The notes below the pieces were generated by a model. It was not told the origin of the DNA. It did not search any database and saw nothing but the letters and a program-made list of their open reading frames with translations. Positions 41,960 through 64,000 of a stretch of 64,000 nt of DNA are shown piece by piece; positions within the stretch are counted from its first letter, which is position 1, and each line of letters starts with the position of its first letter. Source of the stretch: Candida dubliniensis CD36 (lineage: Eukaryota > Ascomycota > Pichiomycetes > Serinales > Debaryomycetaceae); NCBI RefSeq assembly GCF_000026945.1, contig NC_012863.1, positions 248,001 to 312,000 of the forward strand, in the 5' to 3' direction. The position numbers were made by a program, and so were the translations under genes.

Positions 41960-43122
41960 ATCTAATATTACTAACTGTTGATAATATAAATCATTAATTA
42001 ATTACGTTACATCTAATCTAATCGAATCGTTTTATTTTATTTTATTTTATTTTATTTTATTCTTTAATTACAATAAACAAACATATCATCAGTACTTATT
42101 CTTTTACACCTGTTTATTGATCGTCAATGTCTACAAAATTACTTCCCACTACTACTGGTAATTCTCTTTTTTCTTTTTCTTTTTTTTTTTTTTTTTTTTT
42201 CATATCTGACCAGTAATCAATCAACAGTCATAGTATATATGCTTACAAGAATTGAATTGACTTAAATTGAATTGACTTGAATTGAACTGAGTTGAACTGA
42301 GTTATGTTGTAATAAGTTTTGTGTTGGTTGGTTGGTTGGTTGCTATTATTCCCACGTTCTCTCCCTTCTTTTTTCCATTTATGTGTATTAAATCGCGTCT
42401 TTTTGTCAAACTATTACTACTTACTACTTACTATTACTACTTACTACTACTAACCCTGACCAATTGTGACTAATAATTTACTAGAACTTGGAAATTTCTT
42501 CTGTTACTTCTGGTGTAGTAATCTTTGATAATAGGTAACTCCTCCTCCCCTTGAACTAAAGAGGGAACCAGTTGCATTGGTACGATGACAAACAACAACG
42601 GCTACCACGGAGATAAACCAAAAAAAAAAAAAAAAGAGAAAAAAAAAAAAGAAGTAGAACAAAAACTTCAAATCCCTTTTTGTCATTGTTGCTGTTGTTG
42701 CTACTGCTGCTGTTGGTGCTGCCGTGCCATTAATTGTTTTTTCTTTTGTGTGTGTGTATGTGTGTGTGTGTGTGTTTCAGTTTGCACGTGATACAAAAAA
42801 AGTATACACTCTCGCAGAAAAAAAAAAAAAAAAAAAAAAAAGATGCCAAAAGTTTTAAATTTTTTTTTGGTATCACTTTCCATGCACTCCTGCACATATA
42901 ATATTTTTGTTAGCCGCCTCACATGAATCTATTTTTGGCCAATAATAAAATTTAACTAGAATTCGCGGTGGATGAAGTATAAACAAAACAAAACAAAACA
43001 AAAGAAAAAAAATTCAACAAATTTTTTTTTTTTTTCCCTCTACCCACCACTCTTTTTCCTAAAACCTTCATTCAACAATCTTTTATATAGGCTATACAAA
43101 GAGATGATTAACCCTATTTATA
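41960..43122. other. Flank upstream of the transposase gene
   Basis: No gene seen. It has TTTTA repeats at 42033-42061, a poly(T) at 42181-42200, GTTGG repeats near 42330, TACT repeats near 42415-42450, TG repeats near 42749-42776, poly(A) at 42820-42841 and AAAAC repeats at 42984-43002. CACGTG at 42785-42790. No terminal inverted repeat of a transposon could be matched by eye to the sequence after 45654. Confidence 0.5.
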
Positions 43123-44683
43123 ATGGCTAAAAGGTATAAATTGATCAAAAAAGGACTGAATAATCCCGTTGATGACAATAAGACGCTTCAAGCTGCTTTT
43201 AAAGAAGCATCTTCAACACCAGAGAAGTTTATGTTTAATGGTTTATCTAATGAATTTGAAGACAATGTTGATTTAATAATTGGTTATTTCAAAGATGATG
43301 AATTTGAAAGATGGTTTAAACTGATTAGTTTGAATTATAATTGGTCAAGAAAGAGTTCTTTTGAATCACCAGAAGAGAATAACAATGATAACAAAATTAG
43401 AAAACTGCTTTATTCCAAAGAAGAATATTTTGGTTGTTCTCTGAGAGGAAAATTTAAGTCAAAATCAAAAAAAAGCAACGATGATATTGTTAACCAGACA
43501 ATATCATCAATAAAATCTAATTGTCCGGCAAGACTTTACGTTAAACAACAAAAAGGTATTCCTGGTTATAAATTAATTGGGTTTGTACCAACTCATAATC
43601 ACGCTCCACAAGAGAATGGACCTTTAAATGTTGTGGCAAGAGATTGGCTAGTTGATATGATTGGAAAAGGTTACACCAGGAGTCAAATTGAAAAAATATT
43701 ATTTAACCTTCATGGTCAAAAAAATAAAAATCAAATTCCAATGAATTACAAACCATTTTTAAGAATTCAAAAATATCATATTAATTACTGGATCAAACAA
43801 TATTATGATAATAAAAAATTCAAATTAGATCAAGATAATAAAATAAATTTGCTTAAATGGGGTGAAAAGATTTCGTCTGATGGTTCTTTCAATTACATTG
43901 ATTTAAAAGGAAATGTTGCCACCACTACAGGAAAACCGGGTTGGTGTTGTTTTTTTTTTGATTCTTGGCAAAAGGAGGAAATATTGAAGAAGAAGAAGAA
44001 GAAGAATCAGCTGATTTATTATTTGGATTGTACTCATAATATTTGCCAGGATTTTAACCAACCACATAAGTTAGGTTGGACCTATTTATATACTATAATG
44101 GTCCGAGATGATGTCACCGGAATGGATACCCCTGGTGCTTATATGTTAACCAATTGCTTAGATGAAGAGCCATTAATTGAGTTTTTAAAATTTATTAAGA
44201 GTCATTCATTGTCGCCAGACCAATTTATGATTGATTGCTCCTTTGTTGAAATAAACTCAATTAAACAAGTGTTTCCAAAGTCGATGATTATCATATGTAA
44301 GTGGCATATATTAAGAAATGTTAAACTCAAGGTCAAATCGAAAATTGCAAATGTAAAACTTCAAGAGGAAGCCATTAACGATTTTATAAATTTATTTGAA
44401 AATAAATCTCCACAAGATGCTCAAATGAAGATTGACGCCTTTAAGAACAAATATAAAGAGAATACTGAGTGGTTAGAGTATTTTTGTTATTATGAGAAAT
44501 TAAAAGGACATTGGATGAATAACCTGGTTGTGTCATTTAACCAAAAGAATGTTACAAATAATTACATTGAAAGTTATCATCGTTTTTTGGAACAAAAGTT
44601 TATAAGAGTATTTAAAAAGCGACAAGCGGATGATCTTGTTTGTGTGTTATACCATGATATTACTCCTTTTTATAGGAAACGTC

Positions 44684-44752
<69 letters not shown>

Positions 44753-45654
44753 CTACTAGTGGTAAAAGACAAGGAAAAATTGACAAAGTTGAAACTTCTA
44801 ATAAAAGATTTGCGTCTTGTTTAACCAAGGAACAGTTGCAGACATTGGTTGTGATTCAGGGAGATGGTGCCTTTGTTAGAATTTCTGAAAAAGATGAAGA
44901 ATATGTTGCTATATTACATTCAGATGGACTGGGTACATGTACATGTGATTTAAAACAGACGGGTTATTCGTGGTGTAAACACCTTTATATGTATGAAAGA
45001 TTGAAGCAATTGGTATTTGACACTGAGTCCGTTGAGGCAACAGATCTTATCAATGGAGTTAGTGACGGAAATCAATGTAACCCAGAAATTACTGAAGAAA
45101 ATGGAATTTTTTATCCGTTGATGGATTTCGATACAACTATAACACCACAAACTATAGAAAATGGAAGCAAAATTAGAATTAGAATTAGAAATACAAATAC
45201 AAATACAAATACAACAAAGGAAAAAAATCCAGTATATGATAAACAACAAACTGAAATGGTTGATCTTTCAGTATTTGATGACTCTGGAGATTTTGATGAT
45301 AATCTTGTTATTTCACATCTGATTGAATCACCAGAAATAACTAGTGAATATGAAAATCAAGATCTTATTCATCAGTTTATGAAAACAAAATCAAGAATAG
45401 TCAATTTCCAACCAGCATTTCCAACAAATTGTTTACCAGAATTACCTGAAATAACAGATGAAGAAAAAGAACATCAAGGACTAATTGATTTAAACTTAAT
45501 AATGAAAAGATTTAATGAAGTTAGTGAAAAGTCACCTGAAAAACTTGATAATTTTTTATTGAATATAAAAAATTGGAAGGATTTTGCTGATCAAATAGTC
45601 ACTAATCAAGATAATTTGGCTTATAATATAAAACGAAGAAAAATAAACAAATGA
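43123..45654 (+). CDS. Mutator-like (MULE) transposase, all motifs intact
   Basis: An 843-residue uninterrupted ORF with the MULE plan. The N-terminal FLYWCH/FAR1/WRKY-GCM1-type zinc module has C105 (FGCS), C134 (CPARLYV), H158 and H160 (THNH). The transposase core has D302 in YLDCTHN, D371 in MIDCSFVE, C392/H395 in IICKWHI, and E483 in TNNYIESYHRFLEQKF, matching the family's TNNxxES signature. The SWIM zinc finger has C606, C608, C618 and H620 (CTCD...WCKHL). A 22-Asp run (522-543) sits between core and SWIM. The C-terminal 220 residues are charged and not conserved to my eye. No frameshift or stop. The family excises and inserts DNA elements; host-domesticated derivatives act as transcription factors. 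Which applies here is open, as no terminal inverted repeats are visible. CTG codons (e.g. near 44012) would be Ser. Confidence 0.85.
44686..44751 (+). repeat. (GAT)22 coding microsatellite, 22 Asp
   Basis: An uninterrupted triplet run inside the transposase gene, between the catalytic core and the SWIM finger. The purity of the run suggests recent expansion and allele length variation. Confidence 0.95.
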
Positions 45655-45821
45655 TCGGATTTATAAAATTATTAAATAAAATCGATTAAAAATGTATTAT
45701 ATCTTACTGATAAATTTTTTGGTAGATTAACTGCTATTAACTGCAATTAATGCAATTAATGCAATTAATTGCATTAAAGAATTGGTAAAAGAATTACCAT
45801 AGGATTGGTAAAAACCACTTG

Positions 45822-45857
<36 letters not shown>

Positions 45858-60977: not shown

Positions 60978-64000
<3,023 letters not shown>

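What the first reader, a model, noticed from the sequence alone, without database searches (positions are those of the whole stretch)
43123..45654. Full-length MULE transposase with every catalytic and zinc residue intact
The ORF has the N-terminal zinc module (C105, C134, H158, H160), DDE acids (D302, D371, E483 in TNNYIES), the C392/H395 pair and the SWIM finger (C606, C608, C618, H620), without stop or frameshift over 843 codons. Most old transposons in yeast genomes are broken. Intact motifs imply recent activity or purifying selection for a host role, as in plant FAR1/FHY3 regulators.
Basis: partly seen in the sequence, partly recalled or inferred. Interest (0 to 1): 0.75.

Follow-up and report, generated by a model that had tools for sequence, protein, structure and literature searches.

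The report
Intact but stranded yeast transposase gene
A yeast carries a whole, apparently selected gene for a jumping-gene enzyme, but the element around it seems to have lost one of its two ends, so it probably can no longer move and may be a leftover or a gene kept for another use.

Summary
In detail: window 43123-45654 (+) is an 843-codon ORF (CTG=Ser) with every listed residue in place. It is a Mutator-like (MULE) transposase with an N-terminal FAR1 zinc module; both Pfam hits lie just below Pfam's cut-offs, and the SWIM finger is a motif without a profile hit. The genome is Candida dubliniensis CD36. The one close copy, on contig C7, is a 1.66-kb internally deleted derivative with short imperfect terminal repeats and a 9-bp target duplication. 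Compared with it, the window element keeps a left end but lacks the right end, so it is probably immobile. Its frame was nevertheless selected for: dN/dS against the deleted copy is 0.27, or about 0.4-0.6 with the mutation spectrum allowed for, with no stop where about 5-13 were expected. Whether selection acted on a transposon or for the host is not resolved. The genome holds two more full-length open MULE ORFs and two core-less zinc-domain ORFs, one with a C. albicans counterpart. New member of a known kind; the host-role reading stays open.

The parts
43123..45654 (+). MULE transposase ORF, 843 codons (P0001)
43393..43605 (+). FAR1-type zinc module, residues 91-161 (C105, C134, H158, H160)
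   Evidence: Pfam FAR1 2.4e-5, below cut-off; ligands checked
44008..44670 (+). Catalytic core, residues about 296-516, with D302, D371, E483 and C392/H395
   Evidence: Pfam MULE 330-399; residues; 80% identity to P0002 over 296-516
44684..44752 (+). Triplet array of 23 copies, in frame, encoding 22 Asp (residues 522-543)
44938..44982 (+). SWIM-like finger, residues 606-620 (CxCx9CxH)
   Evidence: motif; no Pfam SWIM hit at E<=1
42839..42855 (+). Left terminal repeat, inner 17 bases; the same 17-mer, inverted, stands at the right end of the C7 copy. Positions outside it are an A-run
42842..43122 (+). 5' non-coding part of the element, shared with the C7 copy (79% identity)
45655..45826 (+). 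3' non-coding part shared with the C7 copy (78% identity); homology stops at the following T-tract, where the C7 copy goes on for about 235-245 bp to its right terminal repeat
43892..45450 (+). Stretch missing from the C7 deletion derivative (codons about 257-776)

Best explanation
The ORF is the transposase gene of a nearly extinct, low-copy MULE family of C. dubliniensis. Shown: intact protein, conserved catalytic and zinc residues, a deleted sister copy with terminal repeats and a 9-bp target duplication, and selection on the reading frame over the divergence of the two copies. Inferred from the family: the FAR1 module binds the element ends, the DDE core cuts and rejoins DNA, and insertion makes a 9-bp duplication. 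Because no right terminal repeat was found for this copy, it most likely cannot move itself; its protein, if made, could act only on other DNA in trans or as a DNA-binding protein. I read it as a stranded transposase gene whose frame was kept by selection for much of its divergence from the sister copy.
For: MULE and FAR1 matches and all residues. Residues 296-400 are 86% identical to P0002 while 641-775 are 55%. C7 copy: inverted exact 17-mer; 21 of 28 end positions match and an exact in-register 9-bp repeat flanks it, a pattern seen in 103 of 100,000 random pairs and 22 of 21,389 composition-matched pairs. Window copy: no right-end similarity downstream (35 of 200 shuffles score as high); the 17-mer occurs in the genome twice exactly and twice with one mismatch, none of them on the window element's right side. 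dN/dS 0.27 over 302 codons; spectrum-aware 0.44 or 0.59 by starting copy, with 0 and 54 of 5,000 neutral simulations as low; context-stratified odds ratio 0.27, p=2.5e-4, adjusted omega 0.40; chance of no stop in the ORF if neutral about 1.6e-5 with all AT-ward change on this branch, 0.029 to 7.5e-7 for a quarter to all of the change in the simpler estimate.
Against: Silent changes cannot be assigned to a branch, so selection is shown for the pair and only indirectly for this copy. Among amino-acid differences polarised with P0002, this copy changed at 15 sites and the deleted copy at 8, 5 undecided, so it is not the slower one. Selection may have acted while the element still moved. dN/dS covers 302 of 843 codons, none in the core. 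Loss of the right end rests on one comparison copy. A longer gapped alignment of the C7 copy's right end with its own left end was no better than shuffles (96 of 200; with the window's left end 166 of 200), so the terminal-repeat claim rests on the 17-mer, its position and the 9-bp repeat. The window copy's own best inverted pair (42818-42879 with 45788-45849, 71%) could be read as its two ends; outside the A/T tract it matches 20 of 38, and the best such pair in these flanks (23) is no better than in 12 shuffles (21-24).
Confidence: 0.68

Rival explanations
1. Host-domesticated gene: the protein is kept by the yeast as a DNA-binding regulator or nuclease, like plant FAR1/FHY3 or K. lactis alpha3. 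(It overlaps the best explanation, so the two odds need not sum to one.)
For: Intact frame with a missing end, and a selection signature; PMC6446971 (passages) makes the same argument for Ghost elements; the related core-less ORF P0003 has a counterpart named from C. albicans (P0006, 61%, cluster of 218 sequences).
Against: No protein named from C. albicans was returned for P0001; the family left a copy with a target duplication, so it moved; no expression, synteny or phenotype data.
Confidence: 0.28
2. Recently active autonomous element.
For: All listed catalytic residues intact; a deleted sister copy with target duplication exists.
Against: Right end not found; the only close copy is 84% identical and broken; the two flanks match nothing else in the genome at length (the longest other match is 34 bases at C7:821149, in an AAACA-repeat part).
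Confidence: 0.06
3. Neutral relic that is intact by chance.
For: Low copy number; more polarised amino-acid change than the deleted copy (15 against 8).
Against: Omega 0.27 to 0.6 and no stop where 5.4 (302 codons) or about 13 (whole ORF) were expected.
Confidence: 0.04

Closest known systems
Phantom-Ca, the C. albicans MULE (group 2 of PMC6446971, passages read)
   Same: Candida MULE, one ORF, 9-bp target duplication (seen here in the C7 copy)
   Different: The table gives a 34-bp terminal repeat and no zinc-finger type; here about 28 bp, imperfect, with FAR1 and SWIM-like motifs. Sequences could not be compared
Plant FAR1/FHY3 (PMC6000157, passages read)
   Same: Same order: FAR1 zinc domain, MULE core, SWIM finger; there domesticated
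   Different: No evidence here of expression, binding or regulation
K. lactis alpha3 (PMC5499181, passages read)
   Same: Yeast protein related to MULE transposases
   Different: alpha3 lies next to MATalpha and acts in mating-type switching; this ORF lies beside ILV6 (name recalled)
Plant FRF1-FRF4, truncated FAR1-domain proteins (PMC6000157, passages read)
   Same: Like P0003/P0006: FAR1 domain without core or SWIM
   Different: P0003/P0006 also keep the C-terminal end of the transposase

Membership tests
MULE (Mutator-like) transposons | MULE DDE transposase domain | tested here: met
   E=2e-5, 25.3 bits, under the 27.6 cut-off; 29.3 bits in the six-frame search; D302, D371, E483
MULE (Mutator-like) transposons | Terminal inverted repeats at both ends of the window copy | tested here: not met
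   left end only; no right end found. Some MULEs lack terminal repeats (PMC6446971, passages)
MULE (Mutator-like) transposons | 8-11 bp target duplication | tested here: met
   9 bp in the C7 sister copy only; not determined for the window copy, whose right end is missing
MULE (Mutator-like) transposons | FAR1 and SWIM zinc modules (present in part of the family) | tested here: inconclusive
   FAR1 below cut-off, SWIM motif only
Phantom-Ca | Sequence relationship to the C. albicans element | not testable with these tools
   Repbase not held
FAR1/FHY3-like domesticated regulators | Reading frame under purifying selection | tested here: met
   does not tell host from transposon selection
FAR1/FHY3-like domesticated regulators | Single copy retained at one place across species | tested here: inconclusive
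   one relative of unknown host; no synteny data
FAR1/FHY3-like domesticated regulators | Expression and gene regulation | not testable with these tools
   no RNA or binding data
K. lactis alpha3 | Located at the mating-type locus | tested here: not met
   17 ORFs of 150 aa or more in the window, none of which I recognised as a mating-type gene (judged by recall, no database call)

The most novel reading that the evidence does not exclude
C. dubliniensis has taken over MULE proteins for its own use more than once: an intact catalytic transposase stranded beside ILV6, and core-less FAR1-domain proteins, one with a C. albicans counterpart, that together form a yeast parallel to the plant FRS/FRF system.
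Probability: 0.25. Interest if true: 0.65.

Novelty: new member of a known kind. Interest (0 to 1): 0.4.

Why it matters
PMC7175516 (passages) says that the DNA transposons of C. albicans, MULEs included, have not been characterised in detail. A selected, immobile transposase, and a core-less relative found in two species, would make the route from transposon to host gene testable in a tractable yeast.

Tried and rejected
Structure prediction from a two-row alignment gave mean pLDDT 32 and was not used; no fold search was run. The PDB sequence search gave no credible relative (best E 0.13). Scans of bacterial/archaeal genome contigs and of viral contigs with the P0001/P0002 alignment found none. 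Searches used all three protein searches, so P0004 and P0005 were not searched for relatives outside this genome. The Candida Gene Order Browser paper (PMC2880306, passages) holds no word beginning with 'transpos'.

My note, that the deleted P0005 form had itself moved, is withdrawn: its two copies share a block of at least 4,075 bp at 99.6% identity, so a segmental duplication explains them. A RIP-like process was considered and rejected: silent C-to-T type change is rare in CpA (2 of 22) and common in CpT, CpC and CpG (21 of 45). The stop-codon estimates ignored context and were replaced. From I dropped two rows (C2:1988876 and C7:337857) as poly-Asp matches. The 17-mer search gave 19 hits at up to 2 mismatches against 13 for the reversed control, so I used only its 0-1 mismatch hits. 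In one search the window's left end was compared one base out of register (13 matches); one search repeats it in register (21 of 27, the same as the C7 copy's own left end).

Full report
Observation. The opposite strand in register has many stops. Pfam gives MULE and FAR1 at about 2e-5 each, slightly under the curated cut-offs, and no SWIM at E<=1. The six-frame genome search puts the same place over the MULE cut-off.

Organism. A related protein, P0003, is listed by NCBI for C. dubliniensis CD36, on a contig of 3,214,061 bp, the length of contig C2 of this genome.

Copies. Only one close DNA copy was found, on C7 at about 535.4-537.1 kb. It keeps about codons 1-256 and 777-843, has lost about 1.56 kb between them, and carries a tandem insertion near the start (40 bases in the alignment) plus 2- and 15-base losses. 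About 235 bp beyond the shared part stands an inverted exact copy of the 17-mer at the window element's left end. In register, 21 of 28 end positions match and a perfect 9-bp repeat flanks the element, as in MULEs (8-11 bp, PMC6446971, passages). Chance in-register repeats of 9 bp were seen in 103 of 100,000 random pairs. Against this, a longer gapped alignment of the two C7 ends is no better than shuffles (96 of 200), so the repeats are short.

The window copy seems to lack that right end. Homology stops at a T-tract (45826-45855) while the C7 copy continues for about 235-245 bp. The missing piece has no similarity in the window's downstream stretch (score reached by 35 of 200 shuffles; 47 of 200 for the other strand), and the 17-mer has no hit there even at two mismatches. 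The window's left end matches the C7 right end at 21 of 27 positions, its outer part being an A-run. The window copy's own inverted pair (71% over 62 nt) is mostly A/T tract and, without it, no better than shuffles.

Selection. Over 302 aligned codons dN=0.054, dS=0.199, ratio 0.27. The changes are strongly transition- and AT-biased, which inflates dS, so I re-placed the observed changes at random: the ratio becomes 0.44 or 0.59 by starting copy, and 0 or 54 of 5,000 simulations reach the observed value. For C/G-to-T/A transitions from the C7 to the window copy, 23 of 68 silent, 27 of 198 replacement and 0 of 26 stop-making opportunities were used. Stratified by neighbouring base the odds ratio is 0.27, p=2.5e-4; in CpA context alone replacement (6 of 73) and silent (2 of 22) rates do not differ, and the signal comes from the other contexts. 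No stop has probability 8e-4 in the aligned part and about 1.6e-5 in the whole ORF. The whole-ORF figure assumes that the change lies on this branch; with a quarter to all of it there, the simpler estimate runs from 0.029 to 7.5e-7. Against strong constraint on this copy, 15 polarised replacements fall on it, 8 on the dead one, 5 undecided.

A puzzle. The window copy is AT-shifted: 50 C/G-to-T/A differences against 6 the other way (p=1e-9), and silent ones 23 of 68 against 0 of 45 (p=1.7e-6). Two copies of equal age under one mutation process should not differ so. Either the C7 family came later from a GC-richer source, or the window copy mutated in an unusual way. Silent sites could not be polarised; among replacements, 14 of 17 base changes assigned to the window copy are G>A or C>T. 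The C7 copy is then not a simple deletion product of this one.

Relatives. The only database relative of P0001 returned is P0002, 66% identical, of unknown host. No protein named from C. albicans was returned, although for P0003 one was (P0006, named from C. albicans P57072, in a cluster of 218 sequences whose other hosts are not shown).

The wider family. Searches of the genome with P0001, P0003, P0004 and P0005 show at least 14 MULE-related places, two poly-Asp rows left out. Full-length and open: P0001, P0004 (1,059 aa, C3) and P0005 (1,005 aa, C7), the latter two 23-24% identical to P0001, with the same motifs. Open but core-less: P0003 (392 aa, C2) and a 556-aa ORF on C7 whose N-terminal and zinc region resembles P0004 (1e-32; no Pfam hit at E<=0.1). 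The other nine are deleted or carry stops. P0003 and P0006 share the zinc ligands and the C-terminal end of the transposase (P0003: 0 of 1,000 shuffles as good); residues 101-170 are 76% identical and 233-320 53%. The 556-aa ORF's C-terminus is not convincingly related to P0004's (5 of 500 shuffles as good).

Mechanism and verdict. The anatomy fits a cut-and-paste transposase: zinc module to find ends, RNase H-like core to cut and join, finger of unclear role (inferred from the family). The copy itself is probably stuck. I put most weight on a stranded gene under past, perhaps continuing, selection, and about 0.28 on a host role; the two overlap, so these odds need not sum to one. MULEs in Candida are already reported (PMC7175516, PMC6446971, passages). 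Paper searches combining Candida dubliniensis with Mutator/transposase (1 paper), MULE (3 papers) and transposase or genome comparison (12 of 2,386 listed) showed none whose title or start of abstract describes this element; most subscription papers are not in that library.

Noticed in passing
L015:3304-4482 (C2:1744803-1745978): 392-aa core-less FAR1-domain ORF derived from a MULE, with a 61% identical counterpart named from C. albicans (P0006, cluster of 218); perhaps a stronger exaptation candidate than the finding itself. It has 10 CTG codons in 392.
   Followed up: partly
L017:2409-5588 and L018:1510-4527 (-): Two further full-length open MULE ORFs (1,059 and 1,005 aa) of other families; no convincing terminal repeats found.
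   Followed up: partly
L021:1507-3177 (-): 556-aa ORF with an N-terminal and zinc region like P0004 and no catalytic core motifs.
   Followed up: partly
L019:90-4164 and L020:1-4075: Block of at least 4,075 bp, 99.6% identical on two contigs, holding broken P0005 pieces whose match to P0005 starts exactly at its ATG. May be the RB2 part of the major repeat, home of the FGR6 genes in C. albicans (PMC3737206, passages; the link is my guess).
   Followed up: partly
window 43123-45654 against L012: Strong AT-ward asymmetry between the two copies, with silent C-to-T type change rare in CpA context; cause unknown.
   Followed up: partly
L014:6217-7313: Retrotransposon polymerase-like ORFs beside the broken MULE on C1 (identity recalled).
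   Followed up: no
window 62933-63466 (-): ORF with a long poly-Cys run, probably one reading of a simple repeat.
   Followed up: no
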